Assembly: GCF_032884065.1 (NCBI RefSeq)
Contig: NC_088880.1
Span: forward strand, 24,552,715-24,616,714
DNA: 64,000 nucleotides
Source of the DNA: Artemia franciscana
Taxonomy: Eukaryota > Arthropoda > Branchiopoda > Anostraca > Artemiidae
Direction of reading: 5' to 3'
The notes under the pieces: generated by a model
The model's input: the letters and a program-made list of their open reading frames with translations, nothing else
The model's database searches: none
What the model was told of the DNA's origin: nothing
In this document: piece by piece, positions 1 to 35,861 of the stretch
Numbering within the stretch: position 1 is the stretch's first letter
Layout: the number at the start of each line of letters is the position of its first letter
Translations under genes and position numbers: made by a program

Positions 1-690
1 TTCAGGGGTCATTCTTAAAGAATTGGAACACAATTCAAACTTAAGCGTAAAGAGCGAGGTATTGACGAGGGAGCAAACCTCCTCATATACGTAGTAAAAA
101 TTGTGCGAATATAGAAGTTTGTTACGTAAGTTAATTCGTAACTTACGTATATTTATTACAAATAAAAACGTCCGTAGACAAAAACTAAATGTTCTAGCGG
201 CCTTTTTAAATAGCCAAAAAATGGAGGGCAACTAGGCCCCCTCCGCAGCCTTTTTTCTCAAAATCGTCCAATCAAAATTTTTAGAAAGCTATTTAGCCAC
301 AAAAAAGTACAATTAATATGCCAATTTCGTTTTAGTCATTCATGTACGGTGAGCCAAAATCAAAACCTACATTAATTAAAAAGCATTCAGATATTAAATA
401 TGAAAAACCAAGTTTTTTTAACTGAAAGTAAGGAGCAAGATTAAAACTTAAACGAACAGAAATTATTCTGTATTTGAAAGGGGCTGCCCCCTGCTCGACG
501 CCCCGCTCTTCACGCTAAAGTTTGACTCTTTCTCACAACTCCACTTTTTAAGATAATAAAAAGTTTAGTGTAAAGTGTGCGGGGTTGAGGAGTGGACAGC
601 CCCTTCCATATATGGAATAATTTATGTCTGTGTTAAGTTTTATTGTCGCTCCTTACTTTCATTAAAAAACTTATTTTTTCTTATTTAATA
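1..690 (+). repeat. Repeat family A copy, right part with fold-back end
   Basis: This is the right-hand part of a dispersed family (called family A here), recognised by a shared order of blocks: GGGGTCATTCTTAAAGAATTGG, a 'TTGGAGGGCAACTAGGC' block, an 'AAAATCAAAAC..TGCATTAATT' block, and a closing fold-back that starts GTAAGGAGCGA. Other copies lie at 14,516-15,627, 20,812-22,505 and 23,760-24,690. No reading frame is conserved between copies, so it looks non-autonomous. Its class is not recognised. Confidence 0.7.
395..680. repeat. Fold-back (inverted repeat), family A terminus
   Basis: The left arm (about 395-519, containing GTAAGGAGCAAGATTAAAAC and CGCTCTTCACGCTAAAG) is the reverse complement of the right arm (about 563-680, ending in GTCGCTCCTTACTTTCA). 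About 43 bases separate the arms. The arms have diverged more here than in the related fold-backs at 15,341 and 22,213. As RNA it would form a long imperfect hairpin. The matching copy in the duplication is at about 24,401-24,688. Confidence 0.8.
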
Positions 691-1339
691 GATATTTAGA
701 GATTAAGGCCATCACGCGCAGACAAATTCGAATTCATCATTTCCTACAATTTGTTTCATCTCCTCTGGACAATTTTCAGATTAATTAGCTCATTTTAAGT
801 TATGATATTATTTGAAAAACCTTTTTATAAAGCTTATGATCAATTAGTTTTTAGTTATATTTACTAATTCATTATTGACTAACTTAATTTTAATGTGGAA
901 TAAGTTTAAGACGACAGTAAAAAAAATTAGCTACTGAAATAAAAGTTAAAACAGCTGCAATATGTTTACTCCGATGTCTCAAGCCTAAATCATGCTATTA
1001 TTTTTTGTGAATAGAACCTAGCTACCCTTTTCCTTCCATTTAGCGAATATTTTTCGTTCAGAATCATCGAAAAACCAGATGAGAATAATCAAATTCTAGA
1101 GTCATTTTGATATGAAGTCAATGTGTCATTACAACAGTTTTTAATAATGTCAAATCACAAAACTTTGCTTCGCTTAGGTGTTAATAGCCTTAGCAAAATA
1201 ATTACTTATTTGGCTAAGTAATAAAATAATTACTTATATGATACACCCATCATTGTATAGACTGCAATTAGTGGCAGTAAGATGATATAACCAGTCAGTT
1301 CACCAGATTTTCTGATTTCAAGCTGTCCATCGTAGCCAA

Positions 1340-2690
1340 CTGTGAGTTGACTCAATATTACCAAAACTATAAAACACGCAATTTTGATATCAATAGATAT
1401 GACAAAGGAATTTTGGTGCTGATTCCAAATATGTAAGATTCATTAAGTTTAGTGTTATACATTTAAAGCTACGAGCCTAAGAAAATGTGTCTGATAGTTG
1501 AGAAAAAGGGTAGAGACCCCCAAAAGGACAAAGAAGTCTTGTTTTTGTTTTTTACTTTTGTTTTTCCCCCAGGGGTGAACGTATAGAACAAATGGTCCGT
1601 GAATATATACACAGAGATAATTTTGGTTATATTTTAACCAAAATTAGAAAGTTTGTGTGCCATTTTTAAGTGATCAAAAAGATTGGAGGGCAACTAAACT
1701 CTTTCCAACGCCCCCTTTCCCCAAAGTCTTCTGATAAAAATTTCGAGACAGCCATTTTTTTTAGCATAGTTAAAAGATCGGATAGCTTTGCTTTTGGGGA
1801 TAGCCTGATCCCAAAAGGTCCCTGGAGAAAGGGCTGCAAGTTTTGAAAATTTCTCATGTTTACAATTCGTAATTGGGAAGAATACAGACCTTTTTCACGG
1901 AAGAGGGAGGATTTTCTTCTTTAGGGATATTTTCTACGGGGATAGTTTGTCATGGGAAGAGAACTTTCAGGGGAAAAATTTCACACTAATTTGCCTGAAT
2001 TCCAATGCAAAATTTTATTTATCTGTTTTACTTTCTCTTTGCCAACTCAATTTTACATGTGGAGATGTCCCAGAGAACTGTCCCGGGGAAATTATCGGTG
2101 GGGTTGGAATGGTTTGGAAGATTTTTTTCACTCACCCAGATTTTCCAGGGGGGGGGGGATTCTCCATGCTAGAATTTTCCGTGGCAGGAATTCCCCTGTG
2201 TAAAAATTTACACGCAGGGTTAGATTTCTGGCATGATTAAAAAAAACGATCAGATATCGAAGTATTCTTCAAATGAAAGCGTGCCAAGGAGAATCACCAG
2301 CAAAAAATTTACCAGAGGAAGTTTTCAGCAAGGATGGAATAGTCCCGGGGGTATTTTCCGAGTGGGGGGATTTTTTACAGGATTAACTCTTAATGTAAGA
2401 AACTTTTTCTGGAGAAGGGAATTTTACATGGATAGGGGGCCAGATTTTCCAGGATTATTTGAAAAAATATCAGAAATGAAATTTAAATAGTAAGTTCTTT
2501 CTACTAAAAGTAAGGAGCGACATTAAAACTTAAAGAAAACAGAGATTATTCCGCATATCAGGAGGCTTGTCCTCTCCTAAATACCTCACTCTTCACACTA
2601 AAGTCTGAATTAGTGTCCCAACTCCTAAAAAACGACTTCTGAAACGACATTTAATTAAGGCCATTTAATTATAGTAGTATAATTTTAATT
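1340..2690 (+). repeat. Diverged family A copy
   Basis: The order of blocks matches the fuller copy at 20,812-22,505 but is much diverged. It has an 'ACCAAAACTATAAAACACGCAATTTTGATATC' type head (split here only for description), then 'CCCCCAGGGGTGAACGTAT', 'TTGGAGGGCAACTAAAC', 'TTTTCCAGGATTATTTGAAA', and a single fold-back arm starting at the GTAAGGAGCGACATTAAAAC near 2,511. The short open frames here are not conserved between copies and are not taken as genes. Confidence 0.55.
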
Positions 2691-2751
2691 TATTCAAAAG
2701 AACTTTAGCATGAGGAACGAGGTATTGAGGAGGGGACTCAATAGGGGGGAA

Positions 2752-2867
2752 AAAAAAAATTACTATTGATTAGTCAGTAATAAATAATCAGTAGAATGAA
2801 TCTACAAACGATGATTGCTGTATATGTTAATATGTAGCTTAAATCACTCTGTTTTGTCCTAATTAGA
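2752..2867 (+). repeat. 116-bp sequence with a perfect inverted copy
   Basis: This 116-bp stretch, from an A-run to CTAATTAGA, is identical base for base to the reverse complement of 22,890-23,005. It is also present directly at 26,765-26,880 as part of the large duplication. Similarity stops abruptly on both sides. There is no coding potential. Confidence 0.9.
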
Positions 2868-3527
2868 TATTAATATTTAAGCATAAAAGCGAGGACATTT
2901 TAGCAGTACTAAAAACGAAGGATGGCCAAAATGAGCTTTTTTTCTAGGTTGAATTTAAGAGCTGAGAATTAATTCCTAATAAACTCTGTGGAATCAAGAT
3001 AATTTTGATCCTGCTTTGCTAAAATTCTTTTCTAGTCTTTCACCGTCCAAGCGAATTACTAATGACATTATTTTTTTTTGCAGACCAAATGAACTCATGC
3101 TGTTACTTAATGGTGCTTTTTTGTTCTATTTTGAAAATGTGCTAATTAATATTTATGGTATCACATGTTAAGTTTTGTTTGTGTTAAATGTCTTGACGAT
3201 GCAAAATTCTAACCCACTTTTTAACTATGCGGTTTCCGTTCCCTATAAGATGAGTTCTTCTAGCTATTTGCTTGTTCTATAGCTCCCCTTCTGACATTTT
3301 GTATCTTTTCTAAGCTTTTTAACCTGACCGGAATTTCTTAGCCTTTTCTTGTCTTTTCTTGTCCTCTATTCTTGTTTAGTATCAACCAATGATCCTCTAG
3401 TGAGGACATCTTAGTAGAACTAAAAACGAAGGATGAATAAAACAAACGCAGATTTTAATTTTGTCCTCTATATATAGGGTCGGTTTTAAGTTTTAGAGCT
3501 GTTCTTTTTTTCTTTTTTATCACTTCT
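2868..3527. other. Non-coding, locally repeated AT-rich DNA
   Basis: No gene is seen. A motif 'GAGGACAT(T/C)TTAG(C/T)AG.ACTAAAAACGAAGGATG' followed by 'TTGAATTT(A)AGAGCTGAG' occurs near 2,893-2,975 and again near 3,410-3,600. This suggests a partial internal duplication of family B sequence. Confidence 0.5.
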
Positions 3528-3529
3528 TT

Positions 3530-4015
3530 CTTTGTCTTTTATGTCCAGTCGATTGACGTCCTTTTCCTTTTCTATGTTGAATTTTAGAGCTGAGCAGTAA
3601 TTTATAACGAACTCTGTGGAAAACTGTTTGCTGTTGCCGTCTTTTTGTGCAATGGCGTTTATTTTTACATAAAAAGTGGTTGCAACATAACAGGCATCAA
3701 GTAATTGTAAAATTCAAATAAAAATCAAGGGTTTTCAATCTTAAATTCATTAAATTATCCGTGAAATTCTTGTTTTTGCTCCTTTCTCTCCCCTTCTCAA
3801 ATTTTAAAAGAAATAGAACTCTTTACTTTTTTGGAATAAATTATCTTTTTTGCTCTCCCCTCACTAAAAGAGTTTACTGCTCATCCAAGCTCTTTTGCTC
3901 CTTTATGACCTGTTTGCTCCTTTTGATCCTAATATGGCCTGTATGTTCCTTTTGCTCTTTGTATGGCCTGTATGCTCCTTTTGTTCATTGTATGGCCTTC
4001 CTAAGCTAAGAAACT
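3530..4015 (+). repeat. Repeat family B copy
   Basis: This dispersed non-coding repeat is shared with 23,196-23,690 (direct), 43,690-44,110 (inverted) and 27,543-28,028 (via the large duplication). Common blocks are 'GCTGAGCAGTAA', 'GTTGCCGTCTTTTTGTG', a GTTGCAAC block, 'CAAGGGTTTTCAA' and 'TTTACTGCTCATC.AAGCTCTT'. Open frames across it are not conserved between copies. No class is recognised. Confidence 0.7.
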
Positions 4016-5078
4016 GCTTTTGGATTCAACAAACAGTAAAAATAAAGAATCCAGGACATCTATTTTTCCTTTATTTTAATAATAATTGAAAAACTTGTTT
4101 AACTAGAACTTTATTATATCGTTTTCTTATAGCTTATCATATACTTACTACTTCACGTTCTTAGAGTTAGGTTCTATAGAAGAGACCTAGATAAAAAGAT
4201 TGAATAAATTGAAAGGACACTCTTGCTCATATCTTAGAAAAACAAGTACAGTATCTTTGCACTCTTTAATCTATACTGCTAAATTATTAGATTAATAATT
4301 ATAAAATAAATAGTCTCTTACTTCAAATATAATTATAGTGCAGTTAATTGGCAAATCGATTCTTTCCGTTTGATTACTTACAGGAGTGCATTTATGCTCG
4401 TAATTTTTAAAATTGTGTCTTCGTTATGCTGAAAAGAAAGCATAATTTTAATTTGATTGATTTTTTCTTTTTGAAATAGCATCGTATCTGTGTATACAGT
4501 GCTTTTATGTTGGTGATAGAATTGGGTAGACGGAGAAATGTTCAAAGCTGGAATACTTGTTGTTTTTTAATGGGTATCTCTAAGTTCTGTTTTGAAGGCC
4601 AGAGCAAATTTCCAAGACAGAAACGCTAATGAAAATACTATATAAGAACCTCAACTATGCTACAAAAGAACTCTAGAGAATTTTAACGGAAAACTAGGGG
4701 TGTCCTGCACAAGTATTCTTAAATATTGCCGAAAATCATCATTGAAAGAGGGTTTTTTATAGATAGGTATATTATTCAAAAAAAAATTTACTCTACTTCT
4801 TGTCTAATTCTTTTTTTTTTCTTTTATCCTGTGATGATTGTTCTATTCTTGGATAATCTAAATGTATATCTCTTCCATGTTTCCTCTTTCTTTTCTTTTA
4901 TGGAAAATAAATTTGTTGCCATCATATATTTCTTACAGTTATGCAACATTTTTGCTCACTATTATAGCTTTTCTAATCTGTATATACTCAAAAAATTCCA
5001 ATAAATAAAATCGGATGTAGCAACAATAAATTCATTGCTGTGATATTTTAGATTGTAATTTCAATGATTTTTTTCATT
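4016..5078. other. AT-rich non-coding DNA, nothing recognised
   Basis: No domain, repeat end or RNA gene can be seen. The short frame near 4,726-5,004 is rich in F, Y and L and follows from T-rich composition, so it is not annotated as a gene. Confidence 0.6.
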
Positions 5079-5974
5079 TTATTTATGCCACCCATAATTG
5101 TAATGATTGTCACTTGTAGACAAAAATTTTTTGACTTTCACACCATCTTTTAGTAACAGCTCCAGCGATTGAGCATAAGCAAAACTTTGCTTTACAGCAC
5201 GAGAGTTCCTGAACCTTACAGTCTCTGTGACTCTTGGCCATTCTTTAAAATGAAAAACATCAAAGTAAGTGTTGAAATAGACAGCAAGCCAAAGTACTTT
5301 CAAGCGGTGACTTTTGCTGTAGCGTTTTCCAATATGTTCTGTAGGACATTACAGAGACATTTGGAGACGGTTTTATCCTGCTTAATCACTAATTTTTCCC
5401 GATTTGCCTAAACACTAGTAATTGAATCATGACCAGAAAGGCTATCAAGTAACTTTTTACACCTTGCTGGATTTTTCACTTCAGCAGGTAACTTGTTTAT
5501 TGCAACAGTAACGTCACCAGAGACTATAGAATTCACCATCGCAGCTGATCAAAGCTTAGGAAAGTATTCAATGTAACCAGCCAACTGAGTCGAAACGACA
5601 TAAAGAAGTTGCTCACACGTATTACCCTTAGATGAAAGGTGAGAGTAAGCCACTTCTGGAATATAGGGTACATCAGTTGGGAGGTAAACTACGAAATTGG
5701 GGACTTAGGTAGTATTAGCATGACATTTGCCGAAAGTGTCAAAAATGTTTTCAGATTATTCAGTTTTGCATTAGTTCCAAACCACTTAAAGACCCATTCA
5801 TTTGCTAAATTCTTACTTCACTTTGAAAATTTCAGTGCTATCAAAAGAGGCCGAACCATAACGTATAATGTCATCTTTATTAATTCCCGTGTTAAAACTC
5901 CTTTGTACAAAATTCAGCATCGGGGAAACTATTAGTTTATCTTGATTGTCCGTTTCTCGCTTAGCTGAGCTCAT
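5079..5974 (-). pseudogene. Decayed unknown protein-coding sequence (copy 1)
   Basis: Reading the minus strand from an ATG at 5,974, a protein-like sequence can be followed with interruptions to a TAA at 5,079. It starts MSSAKRETDNQDKLIVSP. A middle part reads VVYLPTDVPYIPEVAYSHLS and then STQLAGYIEYFPKL, followed by LPAEVKNPARCKKLLDSLSG, and the last part contains FHFKEWPRVTETVRFRN. It is broken by several in-frame stops (after IFKVK, FPKL, SITSV and VTA) and by frameshifts. The copy at 29,092-29,948 has one more T near 5,255 and keeps the frame there, so this copy carries a one-base deletion. I do not recognise the family. A retroelement ORF1 or a domesticated gene relic are both possible. 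Confidence 0.6.
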
Positions 5975-6586
5975 AGGTTATTATTGGCTGCATGGCATCA
6001 TATCTATTTCTTCTTTATACATGTGTTTGGAGAACTAGGTTAGCTAGTCTTCAAGGGTAGAAAAGCTTCCACCCCCTGGATATAAGTTTGGTGGCACGTC
6101 TTTCAAAACTTTTGTATGCTTTTTTTAATATAGGGAGGATATAAAAATTATATCTTCGAGCTTAAAACCAACAAGTCCATCACACAGACGGCTTATGGCT
6201 TTTGGAGATCGATTGGAAAGGTTATACTTAACTAGCCACAGATTTCTTAGCATGGTTGCTGAAATTTAGTTCACTGTGAATAAAAAATCTCACTCGTTAT
6301 TTACAAAGAAGATTGGATGGCTTCAAAGAAAATAGAATTGACAAGGATTCATTTTGCTGATATGAATGAATTAACAATTCTTTATATTTAAGTCAAGAAG
6401 CCATGCCTTATTTAATCTACCAACTAAAGGCAAGCCGATACATCAATTAAGACAGGGTTTAAGTGTGACATTTACGATACTCAGGGAACATATTCATACA
6501 CAGAAAACGTTGCAACGCTGGCCGGATATTCCCTCTATCACCATCATCAAACTCTCCGACATTTTCTCTGCACTTGGGCTGACATT
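5975..6586. other. Non-coding flank of the decayed gene
   Basis: No gene is seen. If the decayed gene began at 5,974, this would be its 5' flank, but no promoter element can be picked out with confidence. Confidence 0.5.
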
Positions 6587-6617
6587 TCAGCCAGCCCTTT
6601 GGCTGGCTGAGAACTAG
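6587..6617 (+). other. Perfect hairpin followed by CTAG (possible Helitron 3' end)
   Basis: TCAGCCAGCC (6,587-6,596), a CTTT loop and GGCTGGCTGA (6,601-6,610) form a perfect 10-bp GC-rich stem in AT-rich DNA. Three bases later comes CTAG followed by T (6,614-6,618). Helitrons end in CTRR shortly after a hairpin and insert next to T, so this is a candidate right end. The spacing is shorter than the usual 10-12 bases and no left end was found. Confidence 0.3.
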
Positions 6618-9130
6618 TAAAATCAATAAAATTGGTAAGTATAAAGTTCTTTGTACCTTCTATAGTTGTATAGTTCACTTGTTCTAATGGAAAACTAGGC
6701 TAACAAAAGCTGCAGGCCTTTGGTGTGTATGATTAGCCTATTATTAACAGAGGTCAGACTCCACCCCATTAATGTGCAAATATATACCCTGCATTGCTTA
6801 CTGAATCCAACTTTATTGTTTTCGATCAAGTAAAATAGAAGGCTTTTAACATTTTGTTTTAAATGCTTGATATATCCTTGAAAATAATAAATTTCTCTTC
6901 AGTTTTTGGTCCCTATATGGGTCAAATCATTGACATCAAACTTTCAAACTCATTGTTTATTATAGATTCATATTTAAGGTGTAATAAGTATCAAGGTAAA
7001 ATTCTAGTTTAGTTATTTCTTGCTATCTTGGAAAGGGGTTAGGTTGGAAGGTAAAATTCTAGTTAATTGACTTCTTGCTATCTCAGAAAGGGTTTAGGTG
7101 AAGAAAATGAAACTTTCAGGGATGAATCTACTAATTAAAGTATAAGTGTTTTGGTCAAAATTTCAATAGGTATTGACCCATCATTTAGGCACATTTCAGG
7201 GCCCTCTAGAGGGGGAAGGAGTAGATGTGGGTACTTTAAAATACCTTCCTGGGATATACTTTAGCCTGTAGACCCATAGTGTAGATCAATACTGCAGAGG
7301 ACCCAATAAATTATATTTAAATGTTTTTGAGTAGGCTAAGTGATATCTTGGAGGATAAATCTTCTACTTGAGTAAAGCACAAGAACATTGTTTCCAGCTT
7401 CACAACTTTATTAAAGTTTAATTTATGAGGCTTCAAAGGTCTATAAAAGTGTTTCCTAAATTTAGAAGATAACCATTTATATGGCTTAAATTTCTGCTCA
7501 AATAACTGGAATTTTTGGGTAAAATTATGCCAGTTCATATTATTGAGTTACCAATAAAGTGAACATACCGCTCAGTGCATTTTTTATGCTCTTTATGAAT
7601 ATAATAATCACTTCTATTGTAACATCAAATTTAAGCACTTTTTGACCTAACCCAACCTAACTTTATTATAAATAGCCTAGTTTGGCACTGAGAAAGTCTA
7701 GGCTAGTATTATTTTATCAAAAATGAACAAGAAAACAGGGCTAGAAAGCATAGTATTATTTTGTCAGAAAATAACCAATAACTCATACTTTAATTTAAAA
7801 TTTCTTATTTTTTAAGAGCCCAAAGGGTGCTTAAATTTGAATTTGCAATAGAAGCAATTATCATATTTGTAAAGAGCCTAAAAAAGGAACTGAATGGTAT
7901 GATCACTTTAATGGTACATCAATAGCCCAATATCAACTGTCATAATTTTACCAGTTGCAATTTCAAAGCTATAACCATAGACAGGGGCATAGCTCCATTG
8001 GCTGGGATGAGGCAAGAGGGGGTCCATAGCTGGATAGTCAATGGGCATTGACTATCTTTTGGGGGAAAGAAGTATTATATAGCCTAAGTATTACAGATAG
8101 TAACTTATTGCCAACTACAACCTTCTACTTTATTCTAATAAAGATAAAATTAAAAAAAGCTCATAAATTCATGCCCCAGGGCTAGTGCCCCCCCCTCCTC
8201 AAAAACCACCTATAAGGAAAGGGGTGTTGGTAAACTTGTGAATAACATAAGCCTAAATGTGTTTTAAAGATGTCTAAAAATCTTGATGATGCCATTCAAA
8301 ATCTTCACAATTGTAATATTTTCTCCAGGGAAAATCAAGTTTCTTTGTTAAAAAGACTCATCACAAATATGAGCCAAAGCTAAGGCTAGACCTTTAATTT
8401 GATAGGACTTATTTATTAATTTGGTCAAAGTTGAGCTGCTTTCAGTTTAAAAACTGTTTTCACTTCCTGTTTTTGTTTTACTAAAAGAATCTATGGGAAT
8501 CAAATCCTTTTTCAATGCCCTCTTCTTCTTGTTCCATCTTATATTATATTTTTTTTTTAGGTTGGTTCTGAGCCAACAAAAGAAAGTCTGATTTATTAGC
8601 CTGGTATAACCAAATAAAGCTGATACAAATTATATTTTTAATAATTCTAGAGAATGCATCAAAGTTGAGGATTGGACAAAGCTGGTTTTTATGGAACTAG
8701 TTAAGGAACTAAAAGTTTGGCCATCTTATATTACTTAGCCTACAGATGTTCTTATTCTGAATTAACAATTTGCAGAATATGTAGCAGCCCAGTTGTACCA
8801 ATCCTAGAACCACATCTGCATGTGCTCTTCCACCTGATGAGGGCAGGGATAGTGTGTTCCTTCCATATATCTTCAACAGCACATCTTTCTTAAAGCAATA
8901 ACAAAGAAAAGTTACTATTTACCAAAGATTTTACTTGGTAAAATTCAAAAACATTACAGAATACATGATAAACAATTCACACACACTAAGCAAACATAAT
9001 TTAAGTAGTGGATTCAGCTTTTCCTAAGAACGCCAGCAATCAGTTAGAACAGACAATAGTAGCATACTGTAAACAAGCTTTTGGGTAGCTGATGGTTATT
9101 GTATTATATTGGATTAGCAATGCTTCTTGT
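6618..9130. other. Non-coding DNA with a 55-bp tandem repeat
   Basis: No gene is seen. Positions 6,995-7,104 contain two copies of a 55-bp unit that starts GGTAAAATTCTAGTT and includes CTTGCTATCT and AAAGGG(G)TTAGGT. The same motif recurs at the very end of the window (about 63,966-64,000), so it is a dispersed repeat. The remainder is AT-rich with no recognisable domain. Confidence 0.5.
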
Positions 9131-9135
9131 CTACT

Positions 9136-9237
9136 AAGGTCCGTGCGTTGGCCCTGCAGTGCATTCCTGCAGCATGATTTGATCTCTGGGTCCCATATTA
9201 GCAAGCTAAGGTCAAACCCACTGCGCCACCACAGGAC
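9136..9237 (-). repeat. tRNA-derived SINE head
   Basis: On the minus strand the sequence starts GTCCTGTGG at 9,237 and continues into TGGCGCAGTGG (9,228-9,218), a perfect match to the RNA polymerase III A-box consensus TRGCNNAGYGG. A weaker B-box-like AGATCAAATCA (9,185-9,175) starts 43 bases downstream, about the distance found in tRNAs. It does not fold as a full tRNA by eye and lacks a clear anticodon arm, so a tRNA-derived SINE head fits better than a tRNA gene. Copy 2 is at 33,112-33,213. Confidence 0.6.
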
Positions 9238-9239
9238 AA

Positions 9240-10045
9240 AGCTGATGGTTAGTTTTAATAACCTTGGCATTTTGAAAATCTTGTCTATTTTTCTTTATTT
9301 ATGAAACTCAATGGGGCCATTGTATGGTGTTATATAGTACACTAGAAACACTATTTGGGTAACATTTTGGAATTGAAAGGCTGGACTGGACCCATAGAGA
9401 TCTTAGAGAACTAATTATGGGCACATTTCTAAACCAATTTTTTTTTGTAGGTTTGACTTGATTAGGTAACCATAAAGTGCCACAGTGCAGTTTGGATTGT
9501 TTTTTCACATTAAAAAGTGAATAAAAAAGGGTATTGTCTAATGAAAAAAGACAACACCCCCCCCCCTGCAGAAATTCTTAGAGAATCCCCCTGGAAGTTT
9601 CCTTAAATTTGAAATTGCAACAATATTTTTAATTTAAATTATTCCAAAAAAATGTATGGATTATTAACTTACTTGTTGAGCATGGTTTGATTAAGAATCA
9701 CCAGAAAATTGGAATGATTCTTGGCAACATTAATTAAGACTTGCCAGGAATGGCAATCACAGGGGGAAAGTTGAACTTTGAGTTTTGAAATTATCTTCCC
9801 CATTGTATCTTTGTTTTAAAAACGAAATCAGGAGAAATTAAGCAAAGTTTTTTTTTAAAAGTAAATTAGGGTATAGAAAGTATGAATTTCTGGGGGGGGG
9901 GGCACTGATTTCTTTTATTTCTAAAATTCCCTTCACCAAACAAAGCTTGGTTTCCTAGTGCTGCATGTTAAAACACTAAACTACATCTGATTTGACCTAT
10001 CTAGCTATAATACAAATATTATCATAAAAAGCACCATATCTTATT
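9240..10045. other. Non-coding DNA, nothing recognised
   Basis: No gene is seen. It contains C- and G-homopolymers, for example near 9,556 and 9,892. The short frames on both strands are uninformative. Confidence 0.5.
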
Positions 10046-13840: not shown

Positions 13841-13843
13841 TTT

Positions 13844-18467: not shown

Positions 18468-18468
18468 G

Positions 18469-20517: not shown

Positions 20518-20521
20518 CAAA

Positions 20522-23005: not shown

Positions 23006-23195
23006 ATGACGATCGCTGTATATATGTGATAGAAATATATGGAATTTTGAACCTTTTTTTTTTCTCTGTCTAAATAAATGAATTTATCCCCATTTGAAAA
23101 TTTATTTGTTTGTCATAGATAGCCTTTGTGGTGCAAGAAGAAAATACCTAATTTAAGGTGTTACGTCGAAAATTGTCCAAAAACCTTTTGAATGT

Positions 23196-23757
23196 AAGAC
23201 TATCTTTTATCTCCAATCGATTAACGTCCTTTTTCTTTTCTAGGTTGAAAATTAAGAGAGCTGAGCAGTAAATTTCGAAACTAAATCTGTAAGGTCTGTA
23301 TGCCTGTTGCCGTCTTTTTGTGTGTAGCATTTATTTTCACATACAAAGGCGTTGCAACAGGCGTGGCCCCTTATAATTATAAAGTTTAAATAAAAAACCA
23401 AGGGTTCTCAACCTTAAGTAAAGTTAATTTCAGTAAAACTATTTCTTTTTATCTTCTTTTGTTTTATTTTAAAAGAAATGGAACCCTTAACATTTTTAAA
23501 TCTGTTATTATTTTGCTCATCCCTTGCTAAACGGATTTACTGCTCATCTAAGCTCTTCTACTCTTTACGTGGCTTCTCCGCCTCAGCCAAGGAGCCGCTT
23601 CCTGAGTCAAGAAACAAACAAACAAAAGAATCACAGACATTTTTTACAAATTACAGAAGAATTTTTTTTATGTAGTTTCTATAATTGTGTTAATAAAGTT
23701 TTATGTTTTCATCCTGTTTTGGTATATTTCACCTAACTTCACTTCTTGAATGGGGTC
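23196..23757 (+). repeat. Family B copy with tail
   Basis: It shares the GCTGAGCAGTAA, GTTGCCGTCTTTTTGTG, CAAGGGTTCTCAA and TTTACTGCTCATCTAAGCTC blocks with 3,530-4,015. Its tail (23,664-23,757: TAATTGTGTTAATAAAG ... ACTTCTTGAATGGGGTCGCT) recurs at 40,129-40,217. Confidence 0.7.
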
Positions 23758-23759
23758 GC

Positions 23760-24006
23760 TAGAATTTCCATAAAGGGGGGGGGGGGCTGGATTTTCCAGC
23801 ATTATTTGAAAAAATGAGAAATTAAATAAAAAAACAAAACAAGTTTTTTCAACTGAAAGTAAGGAGCAACAGTAAAACTTAAAAAGAACAGAAAATCATT
23901 GCGTATATGAGGGGGTTCGCCCCTTCTCAATATCTCGCATTTTACGCTAAATTTTTTTTTGCAATATCAAAAGAGCTATTTTATTCTAATTAAACGGTCT
24001 TTGTGA
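23760..24006 (+). repeat. Family A segment leading into duplication copy 2
   Basis: It contains a G-run, TTTTCCAGCATTATTTGAAA and GTAAGGAGCAACAGTAAAAC. The family A copy continues without a break into the duplicated segment at 24,007 and ends with the fold-back at about 24,401-24,688. The equivalent left part of copy 1 would lie outside the window. Confidence 0.7.
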
Positions 24007-27000
24007 TACAGGGGTCATTCTTAAAGAATTGGAACACAATTCAAACTTAAGCGTAAAGAGCCAGGTATTGACGAGGGGGCAAACCTCCTCATATACGTAG
24101 TAAAAATTGTGCGAATATAGAAGTTTGTTACGTAAGTTAATTCGTAACTTACGTATATTTATTACAAATAAAAACGTCCGTAGACAAAAACTAAATGTTC
24201 TAGCGGCCTTTTTAAATAGCCAAAAAATGGAGGGCAACTAGGCCCCCTCCCCAGCCTTTTTTCTAAAAATCGTCCAATCAAAATTTTTAGAAAGCTATTT
24301 AGCCACAAAAAAGTACAATTAATATGCCAATTTCGTTTTAGTCATTCATGTACGGTGAGCCAAAATCAAAACCTACATTAATTAAAAAGCATTCAGATAT
24401 TAAATATGAAAAACCAAGTTTTTTTAACTGAAAGTAAGGAGCAAGATTAAAACTTAAACGAACAGAAATTATTCTGTATTTGAAAGGGGCTGCCCCCTGC
24501 TCGACGCCCCGCTCTTCACGCTAAAGTTTGACTCTTTCTCACAACTCCACTTTTTAAGATAATAAAAAGTTTAGTGTAAAGTGTGCGGGGTTGAGGAGGG
24601 GACAGCCCCTTCCATATATGGAATAATTTATGTCTGTGTTAAGTTTTATTGTCGCTCCTTACTTTCATCAAAAAACTTATTTTTTCTTATTTAATAGATA
24701 TTTAGAGATTAAGGCCATCACGCGCAGACAAATTCGAATTCATCATTTTCCTACAATTTGTTTCATCTCCTCTGGACAATTTTCAGATTAATTAGCTCAT
24801 TTTAAGTTATGATATTATTTGAAAAACCTTTTTATAAAGCTTATGATCAATTAGTTTTTAGTTATATTTACTAATTCATTATTGACTAACTTAATTTTAA
24901 TGTGGAATAAGTTTAAGACGACAGTAAAAAAAATTAGCTACTGAAATAAAAGTTAAAACAGCTGCAATATGTTTACTCCGATGTCTCAAGCCTAAATCAT
25001 GCTATTATTTTTTGTGAATAGAACCTAGCTACCCTTTTCCTTCCATTTAGCGAATATTTTTCGTTCAGAATCATCGAAAAACCAGATGAGAATAATCAAA
25101 TTCTAGAGTCATTTTGATATGAAGTCAATGTGTCATTACAACAGTTTTTTAATAATGTCAAATCACAAAACTTTGCTTCGCTTAGGTGTTAATAGCCTTA
25201 GCAAAATAATTACTTATTTGGCTAAGTAATAAAATAATTACTTATATGATACACCCATCATTGTATAGACTGCAATTAGTGGCAGTAAGATGATATAACC
25301 AGTCAGTTCACCAGATTTTCTGATTTCAAGCTGTCCATCGTAGCCAACTGTGAGTTGACTCAATATTACCAAAACTATAAAACACGCAATTTTGATATCA
25401 ATAGATATGACAAAGGAATTTTGGTGCTGATTCCAAATATGTAAGATTCATTAAGTTTAGTGTTATACATTTAAAGCTACGAGCCTAAGAAAATGTGTCT
25501 GATAGTTGAGAAAAAGGGTAGAGACCCCCAAAAGGACAAAGAAGTCTTGTTTTTGTTTTTTACTTTTGTTTTTCCCCCAGGGGTGAACGTATAGAACAAA
25601 TGGTCCGTGAATATATACACAGAGATAATTTTGGTTATATTTTAACCAAAATTAGAAAGTTTGTGTGCCATTTTTTAAGTGATCAAAAAGATTGGAGGGC
25701 AACTAAACTCTTTCCAACGCCCCCTTTCCCCCAAAGTCTTCTGATAAAAATTTCGAGACAGCCATTTTTTTTAGCATAGTTAAAAGATCGGATAGCTTTG
25801 CTTTTGGGGATAGCCTGATCCCAAAAGGTCCCTGGAGAAAGGGCTGCAAGTTTTGAAAATTTCTCATGTTTACAATTCGTAATTGGGAAGAATACAGACC
25901 TTTTTCACGGAAGAGGGAGGATTTTCTTCTTTAGGGATATTTTCTACGGGGATAGTTTTGTCATGGGAAGAGAACTTTCAGGGGAAAAATTTCACACTAA
26001 TTTGCCTGAATTCCAATGCAAAATTTTATTTATCTGTTTTACTTTCTCTTTGCCAACTCAATTTTACATGTGGAGATGTCCCAGAGAACTGTCCCGGGGA
26101 AATTATCGGTGGGGTTGGAATGGTTTGGAAGATTTTTTTCACTCACCCAGATTTTCCAGGGGGGGGGGGATTCTCCATGCTAGAATTTTCCGTGGCAGGA
26201 ATTCCCCTGTGTAAAAATTTACACGCAGGGTTAGATTTCTGGCATGATTAAAAAAAAACGATCAGATGTCGAAGTATTCTTCAAATGAAAGCGTGCCAAG
26301 GAGAATCACCAGCAAAAAATTTACCAGAGGAAGTTTTCAGCAAGGATGGAATAGTCCCGGGGGTATTTTCCGAGTGGGGGGATTTTTTACAGGATTAACT
26401 CTTAATGTAAGAAACTTTTTCTGGAGAAGGGAATTGTTACATGGATAGGGGGCCAGATTTTCCAGGATTATTTGAAAAATATCAGAAATGAAATTTAAAT
26501 AGTAAGTTCTTTCTACTAAAAGTAAGGAGCGACATTAAAACTTAAAGAGAACAGAGATTATTCCGCATATCAGGAGGCTTGTCCTCTCCTAAATACCTCA
26601 CTCTTCACACTAAAGTCTGAATTAGTGTCCCAACTCCTAAAAAACGACTTCTGAAACGACATTTAATTAAGGCCATTTAATTATAGTAGTATAATTTTAA
26701 TTTATTCAAAAGAACTTTAGCATGAGGAACGAGGTATTGAGGAGGGGGACTCAATAGGGGGGAAAAAAAAAATTACTATTGATTAGTCAGTAATAAATAA
26801 TCAGTAGAATGAATCTACAAACGATGATTGCTGTATATGTTAATATGTAGCTTAAATCACTCTGTTTTGTCCTAATTAGATATTAATATTTAAGCATAAA
26901 AGCGAGGACATTTTAGCAGTACTAAAAACGAAGGATGGCCAAAATGAGCTTTTTTTCTAGGTTGAATTTAAGAGCTGAGAATTAATTCCTAATAAACTCT

Positions 27001-29091
27001 GTGGAAATCAAGATAATTTTGATCCTGCTTTGCTAAAATTCTTTTCTAGTCTTTCACCGTCCAAGCGAATTACTAATGACATTATTTTTTTTTGCAGACC
27101 AAATGAACTCATGCTGTTACTTAATGGTGCTTTTTTGTTCTATTTTGAAAATGTGCTAATTAATATTTATGGTATCACATGTTAAGTTTTGTTTGTGTTA
27201 AATGTCTTGACGATGCAAAATTCTAACCCACTTTTTAACTATGCGGTTTCCGTTCCCTATAAGATGAGTTCTTCTAGCTATTTGCTTGTTCTATAGCTCC
27301 CCTTCTGACATTTTGTATCTTTTCTAAGCTTTTTAACCTGACCGGAATTTCTTAGCCTTTTCTTGTCTTTTCTTGTCCTCTATTCTTGTTTAGTATCAAC
27401 CAATGATCCTCTAGTGAGGACATCTTAGTAGAACTAAAAACGAAGGATGAATAAAACAAACGCAGATTTTAATTTTGTCCTCTATATATAGGGTCGGTTT
27501 TAAGTTTAGAGCTGTTCTTTTTTTCTTTTTTATCACTTCTTTCTTTGTCTTTTATGTCCAGTCGATTGACGTCCTTTTCCTTTTCTATGTTGAATTTTAG
27601 AGCTGAGCAGTAATTTATAACGAACTCTGTGGAAAACTGTTTGCTGTTGCCGTCTTTTTGTGCAATGGCGTTTATTTTTACATAAAAAGTGGTTGCAACA
27701 TAACAGGCATCAAGTAATTGTAAAATTCAAATAAAAATCAAGGGTTTTCAATCTTAAATTCATTAAATTATCCGTGAAATTCTTGTTTTTGCTCCTTTCT
27801 CTCCCCTTCTCAAATTTTAAAAGAAATAGAACTCTTTACTTTTTTGGAATAAATTATCTTTTTTGCTCTCCCCTCACTAAAAGAGTTTACTGCTCATCCA
27901 AGCTCTTTTGCTCCTTTATGACCTGTTTGCTCCTTTTGATCCTAATATGGCCTGTATGTTCCTTTTGCTCTTTGTATGGCCTGTATGCTCCTTTTGTTCA
28001 TTGTATGGCCTTCCTAAGCTAAGAAACTGCTTTTGGATTCAACAAACAGTAAAAATAAAGAATCCAGGACATCTATTTTTCCTTTATTTTAATAATAATT
28101 GAAAAACTTGTTTAACTAGAACTTTATTATATCGTTTTCTTATAGCTTATCATATACTTACTACTTCACGTTCTTAGAGTTAGGTTCTATAGAAGAGACC
28201 TAGATAAAAAGATTGAATAAATTGAAAGGACACTCTTGCTCATATCTTAGAAAAACAAGTACAGTATCTTTGCACTCTTTAATCTATACTGCTAAATTAT
28301 TAGATTAATAATTATAAAATAAATAGTCTCTTACTTCAAATATAATTATAGTGCAGTTAATTGGCAAATCGATTCTTTCCGTTTGATTACTTACAGGAGT
28401 GCATTTATGCTCGTAATTTTTAAAATTGTGTCTTCGTTATGCTGAAAAGAAAGCATAATTTTAATTTGATTGATTTTTTCTTTTTGAAATAGCATCGTAT
28501 CTGTGTATACAGTGCTTTTATGTTGGTGATAGAATTGGGTAGACGGAGAAATGTTCAAAGCTGGAATACTTGTTGTTTTTTAATGGGTATCTCTAAGTTC
28601 TGTTTTGAAGGCCAGAGCAAATTTCCAAGACAGAAACGCTAATGAAAATACTATATAAGAACCTCAACTATGCTACAAAAGAACTCTAGAGAATTTTAAC
28701 GGAAAACTAGGGGTGTCCTGCACAAGTATTCTTAAATATTGCCGAAAATCATCATTGAAAGAGGGTTTTTTATAGATAGGTATATTATTCAAAAAAAAAT
28801 TTACTCTACTTCTTGTCTAATTCTTTTTTTTTTCTTTTATCCTGTGATGATTGTTCTATTCTTGGATAATCTAAATGTATATCTCTTCCATGTTTCCTCT
28901 TTCTTTTCTTTTATGGAAAATAAATTTGTTGCCATCATATATTTCTTACAGTTATGCAACATTTTTGCTCACTATTATAGCTTTTCTAATCTGTATATAC
29001 TCAAAAAATTCCAATAAATAAAATCGGATGTAGCAACAATAAATTCATTGCTGTGATATTTTAGATTGTAATTTCAATGATTTTTTTCATT

Positions 29092-29948
29092 TTATTTATG
29101 CCACCCATAATTGTAATGATTGTCACTTGTAGACAAAAATTTTTTGACTTTCACACCATCTTTTAGTAACAGCTCCAGCGATTGAGCATAAGCAAAACTT
29201 TGCTTTACAGCACGAGAGTTCCTGAACCTTACAGTCTCTGTGACTCTTGGCCATTCTTTAAAATGAAAAAACATCAAAGTAAGTGTTGAAATAGACAGCA
29301 AGCCAAAGTACTTTCAAGCGGTGACTTTTGCTGTGGCGTTTTCCAATATGTTCTGTAGGACATTACAGAGACATTTGGAGACGGTTTTATCCTGCTTAAT
29401 CACTAATTTTTCCCGATTTGCCTAAACACTAGTAATTGAATCATGACCAGAAAGGCTATCAAGTAACTTTTTACACCTTGCTGGATTTTTCACTTCAGCA
29501 TAGAATTCACCATCGCAGCTGATCAAAGCTTAGGAAAGTATTCAATGTAACCAGCCAACTGAGTCGAAACGACATAAAGAAGTTGCTCACACGTATTACC
29601 TTTAGATGAAAGGTGAGAGTAAGCCACTTCTGGAATATAGGGTACATCAGTTGGGAGGTAAACTACGAAATTGGGGACTTAGGTAGTATTAGCATGACAT
29701 TTGCCGAAAGTGTCAAAAATGTTTTCAGATTATTCAGTTTTGCATTAGTTCCAAACCACTTAAAGACCCATTCATTTGCTAAATTCTTACTTCACTTTGA
29801 AAATTTCAGTGCTATCAAAAGAGGCCGAACCATAACGTATAATGTCATCTTTATTAATTCCCGTGTTAAAACTCCTTTGTACAAAATTCAGCATCGGGGA
29901 AACTATTAGTTTATCTTGATTGTCCGTTTCTCGCTTAGCTGAGCTCAT
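29092..29948 (-). pseudogene. Decayed unknown protein-coding sequence (copy 2)
   Basis: This is the counterpart of 5,079-5,974. It keeps the frame across the T-run near 29,271, where copy 1 has lost a base, so LLSISTLTLMFFHFKEWPRV reads through. It has however lost 40 bases near 29,500, removing the SGDVTVAINKLP region and shifting frame. The in-frame stops seen in copy 1 are otherwise shared, so the gene was already dead before the copies separated. The family is not recognised. Confidence 0.6.
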
Positions 29949-30560
29949 AGGTTATTATTGGCTGCATGGCATCATATCTATTTCTTCTTTATACATGTGT
30001 TTGGAGAACTAGGTTAGCTAGTCTTCAAGGGTAGAAAAGCTTCCACCCCCTGGATATAAGTTTGGTGGCACGTCTTTCAAAACTTTTGTATGCTTTTTTT
30101 AATATAGAGAGGATATAAAAATTATATCTTCGAGCTTAAAACCAACAAGTCCATCACACAGACGGCTTATGGCTTTTGGAGATCGATTGGAAAGGTTATA
30201 CTTAACTAGCCACAGATTTCTTAGCATGGTTGCTGAAATTTAGTTCACTGTGAATAAAAAATCTCACTCGTTATTTACAAAGAAGATTGGATGGCTTCAA
30301 AGAAAATAGAATTGACAAGGATTCATTTTGCTGATATGAATGAATTAACAATTCTTTATATTTAAGTCAAGAAGCCATGCCTTATTTAATCTACCAACTA
30401 AAGGCAAGCCGATACATCAATTAAGACAGGGTTTAAGTGTGACATTTACGATACTCAGGGAACATATTCATACACAGAAAACGTTGCAACGCTGGCCGGA
30501 TATTCCCTCTATCACCATCATCAAACTCTCCGACATTTTCTCTGTACTTGGGCTGACATT

Positions 30561-30591
30561 TCAGCCAGCCCTTTGGCTGGCTGAGAACTAG
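30561..30591 (+). other. Perfect hairpin followed by CTAG (copy 2)
   Basis: Identical to 6,587-6,617: 10-bp stem, CTTT loop, GAA, CTAG, T. Confidence 0.3.
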
Positions 30592-33111
30592 TAAAATCAA
30601 TAAAATTGGTAAGTATAAAGTTCTTTGTACCTTCTATAGTTGTATAGTCGACTTGTTCTAATGGAAAACTAGGCTAACAAAAGCTGCAGGCCTTTGGTGT
30701 GTATGATTAGCCTATTATTAACAGAGGTCAGACTCCACCCCATTAATGTGCAAATATATACCCTGCATTGCTTACTGAATCCAACTTTATTGTTTTCGAT
30801 CAAGTAAAATAGAAGGCTTTTAACATTTTGTTTTAAATGCTTGATATATCCTTGAAAATAATAAATTTCTCTTCAGTTTTTGGTCCCTATATGGGTCAAA
30901 TCATTGACATCAAACTTTCAAACTCATTGTTTATTATAGATTCATATTTAAGGTGTAATAAGTATCAAGGTAAAATTCTAGTTTAGCTGTTTCTTGCTAT
31001 CTTGGAAAGGGGTTAGGTTGGAAGGTAAAATTCTAGTTAATTGACTTCTTGCTATCTCAGAAAGGGTTTAGGTGAAGAAAATGAAACTTTCAGGGATGAA
31101 TCTACTAATTAAAGTATAAGTGTTTTGGTCAAAATTTCAATAGGTATTGACCCATCATTTAGGCACATTTCAGGGCCCTCTAGAGGGGGAAGGAGTAGAT
31201 GTGGGTACTTTAAAATACCTTCCTGGGATATACTTTAGCCTGTAGACCCATAGTGTAGATCAATACAGCAGAGGACCCAATAAATTATATTTAAATGTTT
31301 TTGAGTAGGCTAAGTGATATCTTGGAGGATAAATCTTCTACTTGAGTAAAGCACAAGAACATTGTTTCCAGCTTCACAACTTTATTAAAGTTTAATTTAT
31401 GAGGCTTCAAAGGTCTATAAAAGTGTTTCCTAAATTTAGAAGATAACCATTTATATGGCTTAAATTTCTGCTCAAATAACTGGAATTTTTGGGTAAAATT
31501 ATGCCAGTTCATATTATTGAGTTACCAATAAAGTGAACATACCGCTCAGTGCATTTTTTATGCTCTTTATGAATATAATAATCACTTCTATTGTAACATC
31601 AAATTTAAGCACTTTTTGACCTAACCCAACCTAACTTTATTATAAATAGCCTAGTTTGGCACTGAGAAAGTCTAGGCTAGTATTATTTTATCAAAAATGA
31701 ACAAGAAAACAGGGCTAGAAAGCATAGTATTATTTTGTCAGAAAATAACCAATAACTCATACTTTAATTTAAAATTTCTTATTTTTTAAGAGCCCAAAGG
31801 GTGCTTAAATTTGAATTTGCAATAGAAGCAATTATCATATTTGTAAAGAGCCTAAAAAAGGAACTGAATGGTATGATCACTTTAATGGTACATCAATAGC
31901 CCAATATCAACTGTCATAATTTTACCAGTTGCAATTTCAAAGCTATAACCATAGACAGGGGCATAGCTCCATTGGCTGGGATGAGGCAAGAGGGGGTCCA
32001 TAGCTGGATAGTCAATGGGCATTGACTATCTTTTGGGGGAAAGAAGTATTATATAGCCTAAGTATTACAGATAGTAACTTATTGCCAACTACAACCTTCT
32101 ACTTTATTCTAATAAAGATAAAATTAAAAAAAGCTCATAAATTCATGCCCCAGGGCTAGTGCCCCCCCCCCTCCTCAAAAACCACCTATAAGGAAAGGGG
32201 TGTTGGTAAACTTGTGAATAACATAAGCCTAAATGTGTTTTAAAGATGTCTAAAAATCTTGATGATGCCATTCAAAATCTTCACAATTGTAATATTTTCT
32301 CCAGGGAAAATCAAGTTTCTTTGTTAAAAAGACTCATCACAAATATGAGCCAAAGCTAAGGCTAGACCTTTAATTTGATAGGACTTATTTATTAATTTGG
32401 TCAAAGTTGAGCTGCTTTCAGTTTAAAAACTGTTTTCACTTCCTGTTTTTGTTTTACTAAAAGAATCTATGGGAATCAAATCCTTTTTCAATGCCCTCTT
32501 CTTCTTGTTCCATCTTATATTATATTTTTTTTTTAGGTTGGTTCTGAGCCAACAAAAGAAAGTCTGATTTATTAGCCTGGTATAACCAAATAAAGCTGAT
32601 ACAAATTATATTTTTAATAATTCTAGAGAATGCATCAAAGTTGAGGATTGGACAAAGCTGGTTTTTATGGAACTAGTTAAGGAACTAAAAGTTTGGCCAT
32701 CTTATATTACTTAGCCTACAGATGTTCTTATTCTGAATTAACAATTTGCAGAATATGTAGCAGCCCAGTTGTACCAATCCTAGAACCACATCTGCATGTG
32801 CTCTTCCACCTGATGAGGGCAGGGATAGTGTGTTCCTTCCATATATCTTCAACAGCACATCTTTCTTAAAGCAATAACAAAGAAAAGTTACTATTTACCA
32901 AAGATTTTACTTGGTAAAATTCAAAAACATTACAGAATACATGATAAACAATTCACACACACTAAGCAAACATAATTTAAGTAGTGGATTCAGCTTTTCC
33001 TAAGAACGCCAGCAATCAGTTAGAACAGACAATAGTAGCATACTGTAAACAAGCTTTTGGGTAGCTGATGGTTATTGTATTATATTGGATTAGCAATGCT
33101 TCTTGTCTACT

Positions 33112-33213
33112 AAGGTCCGTGCGTTGGCCCTGCAGTGCATTCCTGCAGCATGATTTGATCTCTGGGTCCCATATTAGCAAGCTAAGGTCAAACCCACTGC
33201 GCCACCACAGGAC
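33112..33213 (-). repeat. tRNA-derived SINE head (copy 2)
   Basis: Counterpart of 9,136-9,237. The A-box TGGCGCAGTGG lies at 33,204-33,194 and the B-box-like element at 33,161-33,151, both unchanged. Confidence 0.6.
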
Positions 33214-34021
33214 AAAGCTGATGGTTAGTTTTAATAACCTTGGCATTTTGAAAATCTTGTCTATTTTTCTTTATTTATGAAACTCAATGGGGCCATTGTA
33301 TGGTGTTATATAGTACACTAGAAACACTATTTGGGTAACATTTTGGAATTGAAAGGCTGGACTGGACCCATAGAGATCTTAGAGAACTAATTATGGGCAC
33401 ATTTCTAAACCAATTTTTTTTTGTAGGTTTGACTTGATTAGGTAACCATAAAGTGCCACAGTGCAGTTTGGATTGTTTTTTCACATTAAAAAGTGAATAA
33501 AAAAGGGTATTGTCTAATGAAAAAAGACAACACCCCCCCCCCTGCAGAAATTCTTAGAGAATCCCCCTGGAAGTTTCCTTAAATTTGAAATTGCAACAAT
33601 ATTTTTAATTTAAATTATTCCAAAAAAATGTATGGATTATTAACTTACTTGTTGAGCATGGTTTGATTAAGAATCACCAGAAAATTGGAATGATTCTTGG
33701 CAACATTAATTAAGACTTGCCAGGAATGGCAATCACAGGGGGAAAGTTGAACTTTGAGTTTTGAAATTATCTTCCCCATTGTATCTTTGTTTTAAAAACG
33801 AAATCAGGAGAAATTAAGCAAAGTTTTTTTTTAAAAGTAAATTAGGGTATAGAAAGTATGAATTTCTGGGGGGGGGGGCACTGATTTCTTTTATTTCTAA
33901 AATTCCCTTCACCAAACAAAGCTTGGTTTCCTAGTGCTGCATGTTAAAACACTAAACTACATCTGATTTGACCTATCTAGCTATAATACAAATATTATCA
34001 TAAAAAGCACCATATCTTATT

Positions 34022-35861
34022 TTTATGGCACTTGGTATCTATCAAGTGACATATAGCAATTGCATATTCTGTTGGTTGGTCTGTCTGTCTGTCCTGTTTT
34101 TGCTAGTTTAGGCACTTCCAGGTAAGCTAGGACAATGAAATCTGGCAGGCGTATCAGGAACCAGACCAGATTAAATTTGAAATTGTCGTTTCCCCGATTC
34201 AATCATGTGGAGAAGAGTGGGGGGATGGTAAACTGGAAAAAATAGAAAAATTAGGTATTTTTAACTTACAAATGGGTGATTGGAACTTAATGGAATTTGA
34301 TGTTTAGAAGGCTATTGTGTCTTAGAGCTCTTATTTTAAATGTTGACTGGATCTGGTGACATGGGGGGGGGGAACCTAAAATCTTGGAAAACGCTTAGAG
34401 TGGAGGGATTGGGATGAAACTTGGTGGGAAAAATAAACACAAGTCCTAGATACCTGATTGGCATAACTGGAACGGATCTGCTCTCTTTGGGGGAGTTGGG
34501 GGGAGGGTTAATTCTGAAAAAATAGAAAAAATGAGGTTTTTTAACTGACAAAGGAGTGATCAGATCTTAATAAAAATTGATATTTGGTAGGATATTGTGT
34601 CTCAGAGTTCTTATTTTAAATCCCAAACGGATCCGGTTACACTGGGGGTAGTTATGAGGGGGGACCTAAAATCTTGGGAAACACATAGAGTGTGGGGATT
34701 GGGATGAGATTTGATGGGAAAAATGAGCACAAGTCCTAGGTACATGATTGACATAACTGGAACGAATCTGCTCTCATTAGGTGAGTTGGAGGGGGGGGGG
34801 GGTTAATTCTGAAAAATTAGAAAAAATGAGGTATTTTTAACTTACAAAGGAGTGATTGGATCTTAATGAAATTTCATATGTAGAAGGACCTCGCAGCTCA
34901 GATCTTATTTTAAATCCAAACTGAATCCAGTGTCATTGGAGGGAGAGGGGGGGGGGACTGGAAATCTTGGGAAATACTTAAAGAGGAGAGATCAGGGTAA
35001 AACTTGATGGGAAGAATAAGAACAAGTCCAAGATACATGACTGACATAACCCTACCAGATCCGCTCTCTTTGGTGGAGTTGGGAGGGGGGGGGGTAATTC
35101 AGAAAAATTAGAAAAAATAAGGTACTTGTAACTTAAAACAGGTGATAATGTCTTAATGAAATTTGATATTTAGAAGGATCGTGTGCTTTATCGCTCTTAT
35201 TTTCAATCCCAACCAGATCTGGTGACATTGGGTGGAGTTGGAGGGGAAATCGGAATTCTTGGAAAACGTGAAAATTAAGGTATCTTTATCTTATGAATGG
35301 GTGATTAAATCTTAATGAAACTTGATATATAGAAAAATCTTCTGTTTCAGATGCTCTCTGTTCAATTTGAATTGGATCTGAGGACATAGGGGGTTGGATG
35401 GGAAAAAAAGAAATCTTGGAAAACGCTGAGAGTGGAGAGATAGGGATGAAACTTGGTGAGAAGAATAAGCACAAGTCCTAGATACATGATTGACATACCG
35501 GACTGAATCCGCTCTCTTTTGGGGAGTTGGGGGTTGTTAATTTGGAAAAATTAGAAAAATTGAGGTATTTTTAACTTAAGAACAGCTGACTTGATCTTAA
35601 TGAAATTTGATATTTAGAAGGAACTCATGTCTCAGAGCTCTTATTTCAAATTCCGACCAGATATGTCGATACTGGGGGGGGGGAGTTGGAGGGGAAATCG
35701 GAAATATTAGAAAACGCTTATAGTAGAGTGATTTGGATGAAACTTGGTTGGTAGAATAAGCAAATGTCTTATATACGTGATTGACGTAACCGGACTGAAT
35801 ATGCCTTCTTTGGGGGAGTTAGGGGTATGGTTCAGTGCTTTGGCGAGTTTGGTGCTTCTGG
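34022..35861 (+). repeat. Family E element 2, truncated by the gap
   Basis: Counterpart of element 1 (10,046-12,207). It keeps the ATGGCACTTGG left end and the tandem units, but the right end with CAAGTGCCAT is missing because the sequence stops at the N gap. Confidence 0.75.

What the first reader, a model, noticed from the sequence alone, without database searches (positions are those of the whole stretch)
1..35861. Direct duplication of at least 11.9 kb at a 24-kb offset, ending exactly at an assembly gap
Positions 1-11,871 and 24,007-35,861 are about 99% identical by eye, including non-coding DNA and homopolymers, and copy 2 stops at a 100-N gap inside a repeat-filled element. Both copies lie in one gap-free stretch, so this may be a genuine young segmental duplication. 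Equally, it is what an unresolved heterozygous haplotype looks like. The answer changes how many copies of every feature in this region exist.
Basis: partly seen in the sequence, partly recalled or inferred. Interest (0 to 1): 0.7.

Follow-up and report, generated by a model that had tools for sequence, protein, structure and literature searches.

The report
Near-identical 11.9-kb repeat, ends unseen
A stretch of apparently mostly non-coding animal DNA appears twice, 24 kb apart and almost letter for letter, but one end of the repeat is cut by the edge of the window and the other by a gap in the assembly, so whether the animal really carries two copies cannot be settled from this sequence alone.

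Summary
The repeat is in the sequence: 1-11,871 matches 24,007-35,861 in the same orientation, with 27 substitutions in 11,827 aligned bases (0.23%) and 17 indels.

Two corrections. The left edge of the match is the window edge: a transposon copy is colinear across 24,006/24,007, so no junction is visible there, and copy 2 may begin anywhere from about 11.9 to 24.0 kb. The right edge is a contig end. Neither true end is seen.

The differences are clustered: over-dispersion in 500-bp bins was matched by 0 of 20,000 uniform placements, or 2 of 20,000 after merging neighbours. One young event followed by even mutation does not fit; haplotype blocks or exchange between copies would.

No assembly gap separates the copies, unlike the usual same-scaffold false duplication. 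Copy 2 stopping at a contig end and an excess of one-base indels point the other way.

I put a real head-to-tail duplication (period about 24.0 kb) and an assembly artefact level at 0.45 each, a real dispersed duplication at 0.10. The assembly outside the window could not be reached (15 unanswered searches). Interest is low.

The parts
1..11871 (+). copy 1 of the direct repeat; left end cut by the window edge, right end not determined
24007..35861 (+). copy 2 of the direct repeat as far as it can be matched; stops at the assembly gap; its true start is unknown (about 11.9-24.0 kb)
11872..24006 (+). segment seen once between the copies; some or all of it could belong to the repeated unit
35862..35961 (.). 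100-N assembly gap directly after copy 2
23760..24700 (+). dispersed transposon copy, colinear with relatives at 21.6-22.5 and 14.7-15.6 kb across 24,006/24,007 (a 12-base insertion lies about 25-36 bases left of 24,007); so no junction is visible there
   Evidence: alignment; one search gives 76.7-77.7% identity for the part that copy 1 shows (1-686)
10044..12214 (+). dispersed element with internal ~290-bp tandem units, seen in copy 1 beyond the end of the match; relatives near 40.3-41.9, 47.3-48.6 and 55.8-57.0 kb
34020..35861 (+). same element in copy 2, broken off by the gap (tandem array called at 34,236-35,246; further diverged units up to the gap by blastn)
11509..11871 (+). last 363 bp of the match: 9 substitutions, after none in the preceding 4,215 bp
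   Evidence: compared with related elements
5486..5525 (+). 40 bp present in copy 1 and absent from copy 2
35675..35690 (+). 16 bp present in copy 2 and absent from copy 1
2752..2867 (+). 116 bp identical to the reverse complement of 22,890-23,005 (repeated in copy 2 at 26,765-26,880)
22890..23005 (-). inverted exact partner of 2,752-2,867; immediate flanks unrelated

Best explanation
The window shows part of a near-identical head-to-tail repeat with a period of about 24.0 kb in a repeat-rich animal genome (the repeat words look to me like brine shrimp Artemia; recalled, not shown). The source DNA really holds the block at least twice, fixed or on some chromosomes only, and the copies have since exchanged sequence or carry blocks of different age. 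The assembler followed the DNA through one period into the next copy and stopped inside a repeat element with ~290-bp tandem units; scaffolding then put 100 N. Shown: the repeat, its orientation, the gap-free stretch, the uneven differences, the contig end inside that element. Inferred: that the copies are adjacent units, that reads support the path, and why the contig stops.
For: Both copies and all DNA between them are gap-free. The copies look like distinct molecules and not one read set placed twice: a 40-bp indel outside simple repeats, 19 transitions to 8 transversions, and, in the last 363 bp, derived bases on both copies when compared with related elements at 41, 48 and 56 kb (for instance TG in copy 1 and CA in copy 2 where the relatives at 48 and 56 kb have CG). 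Inner divergence is low: 2 substitutions in 4,657 bp and 0 in 4,215 bp. The contig ends inside an element built of tandem units, a likely place for an unresolved repeat to break (inference). No gap lies between the copies, unlike the usual same-scaffold false duplication (PMC9516828, passages).
Against: Differences are over-dispersed (0 of 20,000 uniform placements as extreme for 27 substitutions; 2 of 20,000 when neighbours within 5 bp are merged to 22 events), which one event with even mutation does not predict and haplotype blocks do. Copy 2 ends at a contig end, where homotype false duplications are reported (PMC8081667, passages). The stretch 664-5,320 has 12 small indels against 2 substitutions, copy 1 being shorter in 10 of the 12 (p about 0.04), which I read as poor long-read consensus and not evolution. 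That copy 2 begins where copy 1 ends is not shown. No reads and nothing outside the window could be seen.
Confidence: 0.45

Rival explanations
1. False duplication by the assembly: two haplotypes of one locus, or one locus used twice, were laid end to end in one contig by a wrong overlap, linked-read join or gap filling, and copy 2 is a leftover that stops at its own contig end.
For: Block-like divergence 1.06 / 0.04 / 0.46 / 0 / 2.48% over five stretches chosen after seeing the data, as between haplotypes. Copy 2 stops at a contig end. Excess of one-base indels in runs of one base. If the genome is Artemia franciscana (recalled): one assembly is 1.27 Gb with 5.9% duplicated BUSCOs, a two-copy k-mer signal its authors note, and long reads from DNA pooled from 14 females (PMC11492255, sections read); k-mer genome size is ~867 Mb and heterozygosity 0.655% (PMC7955100, abstract and passages). 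A join between two copies of the transposon at 23.8-24.7 kb would leave no trace.
Against: No assembly gap between the copies. Mean divergence 0.23% is below the 0.655% cited, and haplotypes so alike are, to my knowledge, usually merged. A join from the middle segment into copy 2 has to be assumed; none is visible at 24,007.
Confidence: 0.45
2. Real but dispersed duplication: a block of at least 11.9 kb copied to a second site up to 12.1 kb away, with a true spacer between, and not a head-to-tail unit.
For: Nothing in the window shows that copy 2 begins where copy 1 ends; the left end is outside the window and the right end is hidden by the gap.
Against: Only parsimony: close young copies in the same orientation are mostly tandem (recalled). 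Nothing in the window speaks directly against it.
Confidence: 0.1

Closest known systems
Young tandem segmental duplication (unequal crossing-over or replication-based)
   Same: Same orientation, near-identical, includes stretches that are not repeats within this window, many dispersed repeats around
   Different: Adjacency and both ends unseen; divergence far from uniform
Heterotype (haplotype) false duplication as described by the Vertebrate Genomes Project (PMC8081667, PMC9516828; passages seen)
   Same: Near-identical block twice in one scaffold; block-like differences
Homotype false duplication at a contig boundary (same papers, same passages)
   Same: Copy 2 ends at a contig boundary; the visible length is of the order of a long read
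   Different: Copies differ by a 40-bp indel and transition-rich substitutions; no gap between them

Membership tests
Tandem segmental duplication | at least 1 kb at 90% identity or more (recalled criterion) | tested here: met
Tandem segmental duplication | copies in the same orientation | tested here: met
Tandem segmental duplication | copy 2 begins where copy 1 ends | not testable with these tools
   left end outside the window; the genome search did not answer in 15 tries
Tandem segmental duplication | even divergence since one event (expected of a single young event, not strictly defining) | tested here: not met
   0 of 20,000 uniform placements as over-dispersed (2 of 20,000 after merging neighbours); exchange between copies could explain it
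Heterotype false duplication | assembly gap between the pair on one scaffold | tested here: not met
   the only gap is after copy 2; the alternative, a read-depth gap, could not be tested
Heterotype false duplication | half read depth and single-copy k-mers | not testable with these tools
   no reads
Homotype false duplication | lies at a contig boundary | tested here: met
   copy 2 ends at 35,861, N from 35,862
Homotype false duplication | copies differ only by sequencing error | tested here: inconclusive
   small indels look like error; the 40-bp indel and 19:8 transitions do not

The most novel reading that the evidence does not exclude
The exact 116-bp inverted match (2,752-2,867 against 22,890-23,005) is a templated insertion left at the junction of a replication-based tandem duplication. 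Copy 2 would then start near 23,006, and the repeated unit about 1 kb left of the window. That is a sharp prediction, untested.
Probability: 0.06. Interest if true: 0.3.

Novelty: new member of a known kind. Interest (0 to 1): 0.15.

Why it matters
Mainly a caution for annotation: copy numbers of anything in 1-11.9 kb should not be doubled until read depth is checked, and 24,007 should not be used as a junction. If real, it is one more recent duplication with uneven divergence, of modest interest for how such copies exchange sequence in a repeat-rich genome. Gene content of the duplicated DNA was barely tested: of the nine open frames scanned against Pfam one lies in it (1,809-2,237, no match); no RNA family reached its gathering score anywhere in the window.

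Tried and rejected
Own genome: the genome search 'own' was sent 15 times (with window 12,500-14,000; 45, 49, 54, 59, 62, 66 with 2,752-2,867; 68, 70 with 1-1,500) and never answered. So the left flank, the copy number of the 116-bp piece, and other gap-side duplications in the assembly could not be examined.

Naming the organism: one short repeat word in viral contigs, another in prokaryote contigs and viral contigs, and six words in papers gave 0 hits each. The Artemia label rests on recall and on GC: window 35.5% from the base counts; A. franciscana figures seen are 34.68-34.90% for three assemblies and 35.8, 35.5 and 31.85% for survey reads, contigs and scaffolds.

Other papers seen and not used as evidence: PMC9526061 (outline and abstract; one section) and PMC8406910 (passages: an inbred A. 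franciscana assembly with 58% repeats; it also says that an earlier pooled assembly was 41% redundant).

Rejected: a giant LTR element with 11.9-kb ends. Among stop-to-stop frames of at least 110 residues, none in 11.9-24.0 kb exceeds 165, and copy 1 holds several dispersed repeats that do not resemble each other. That segment was not searched for protein families.

'Repeats explain all clusters': 19 of 27 substitutions fall in the 3,648 of 11,871 bp that have relatives elsewhere in the window, but 10,044-11,508 of the right-hand element has none, so repeat content alone does not explain the switch at 11,509.

A stretch at 16.56-16.86 kb looked to me, by eye, like part of a RING-finger gene. 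The frame translated holds stops and a family search there was turned back for stop codons; not pursued.

Statements on the junction at 24,007 and on the contig end were also softened.

Full report
What is there. Self-comparison of the window confirms a direct repeat: 3-5,486 with 24,009-29,500 (99.62%) and 5,526-11,871 with 29,500-35,861 (99.42%), the two pieces separated by a 40-bp stretch that only copy 1 has. A full alignment counts 27 substitutions in 11,827 aligned bases (0.23%), 19 transitions and 8 transversions, and 17 indels. The window has one gap, 100 N at 35,862-35,961; everything from 1 to 35,861 is gap-free.

Where its ends are. Neither end is seen. The match begins at the first bases of the window, so it is cut by the window. 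In copy 2 the corresponding place, 24,006/24,007, lies inside a transposon copy that is colinear on both sides with copies at 21.6-22.5 and 14.7-15.6 kb; the only irregularity nearby is a 12-base insertion about 25-36 bases to the left. The '24,007 junction' is therefore a projection of the window edge. A join between two copies of this transposon would look the same, so a junction in it is not excluded, only not shown. Copy 2 may start anywhere between about 11.9 and 24.0 kb. On the right, copy 2 stops at the gap inside an element built of ~290-bp tandem units (10,044-12,214 in copy 1; array called at 34,236-35,246 in copy 2, with more diverged units up to the gap). The sequence after the gap shows no near-identical second copy of 11,872-24,006.

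What the differences say. Divergence by stretch of copy 1: 1-663, 7 substitutions (1.06%); 664-5,320, 2 (0.04%); 5,321-7,293, 9 (0.46%); 7,294-11,508, 0; 11,509-11,871, 9 (2.48%). These stretches were chosen after seeing the data; the test that does not depend on them is the placement trial. Of 20,000 uniform placements of 27 substitutions, 0 were as over-dispersed in 500-bp bins, 9 had as long an empty run, and 0 had as dense a 350-bp cluster. After merging neighbours within 5 bp (22 events) the numbers are 2, 30 and 110 of 20,000. Repeats with relatives elsewhere in the window hold 19 of the 27 substitutions in 3,648 of 11,871 bp, but the first 1.46 kb of the right-hand element holds none, so repeat content alone does not explain the pattern. 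Comparison with relatives at 41, 48 and 56 kb shows derived bases in both copies within the last stretch; for instance copy 1 has TG and copy 2 CA where the relatives at 48 and 56 kb have CG. The copies, at least there, are two lineages. A single young duplication followed by even mutation does not give this pattern; haplotype blocks, or gene conversion between tandem copies, would.

Signs of poor consensus. Fifteen indels are of one or two bases, and 14 of the 15 change a run of one base (my reading). In 664-5,320 there are 12 of them against 2 substitutions, copy 1 being shorter in 10 of 12 (two-sided binomial p about 0.04; 11 of 15 overall, p about 0.12). I read this as uncorrected long-read error in copy 1; that is inference and suggestive only. 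The 40-bp indel is not error of that kind.

Real or artefact. The published hallmarks of false duplication are half depth, a gap between the pair, discordant linked reads, and single-copy k-mers (PMC9516828, passages); homotype errors occur at contig boundaries and are about as long as a read (PMC8081667, passages). Here an assembly gap between the pair is absent, the contig-boundary feature is present, and the read-based features cannot be tested. The repeat words of this window look to me like those of brine shrimp; that is recall, and searches gave no hit that could confirm it. If it is right, an A. franciscana assembly carries 5.9% duplicated BUSCOs, its authors note a two-copy k-mer signal, and its long reads came from 14 pooled females (PMC11492255, sections read); a second assembly used hifiasm, purge_dups and TGS-GapCloser (PMC10827361, passages and one section); and k-mer heterozygosity is 0.655% (PMC7955100, abstract and passages). 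The prior for artefact is then high. Against it, haplotypes only 0.23% apart are, to my knowledge, usually merged, and a contig that runs on into a second copy is what a real tandem repeat gives. I put a real head-to-tail duplication at 0.45, artefact at 0.45 and a real dispersed duplication at 0.10.

An unexplained detail. With low-complexity matches and the duplication's own diagonal left out, the longest exact match in the window is 116 bp, inverted: 2,752-2,867 (and 26,765-26,880 in copy 2) against 22,890-23,005. The next longest are 97 bp (arms of a fold-back element) and 68 bp. Immediate flanks are unrelated; other matches nearby are 73.7-82.1% alike. It folds modestly (z -2.0; 8 of 200 shuffles fold at least as well). 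It may be a young mobile fragment. It could also be a templated insertion at the junction of a tandem duplication, which would put the start of copy 2 near 23,006 and of the unit about 1 kb left of the window. I give that 0.06.

Limits.

Noticed in passing
60,113-63,030: piggyBac-like element (name recalled): three pieces match DDE_Tnp_1_7; bounded by TTAA and short inverted ends CCCTTTCA/TGAAAGGG (read). The reading frame is interrupted: a frame change near 61.79 kb and a stop near 62.2 kb.
   Followed up: partly
44,742-45,434 (-): 230-residue open frame with a GIY-YIG match (2.6e-5), the kind carried by Penelope-like retroelements (family link recalled).
   Followed up: partly
51,012-52,025 (+) and 42,552-42,932 (-): Reverse transcriptase fragments (RVT_1, 4.2e-14 and 7e-8).
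   Followed up: no
19,821-20,518: A 349-bp unit twice in tandem, 99.1% identical with no mismatch and three gaps: a second very young tandem duplication, inside the segment between the two copies.
   Followed up: no
15,334-15,634 and 22,206-22,509: Fold-back elements (imperfect palindromes of ~300 bp; arms of 97 bp exact in the second), related at 80-82% to 389-689 and 24,399-24,695.
   Followed up: no
46,418-47,264 and 52,990-53,840: Dispersed repeat pair, 88% alike over ~850 bp.
   Followed up: no
51,146-51,257 and 52,264-52,517: Long TC-rich arrays, the first inside the open frame that carries the reverse transcriptase match.
   Followed up: no
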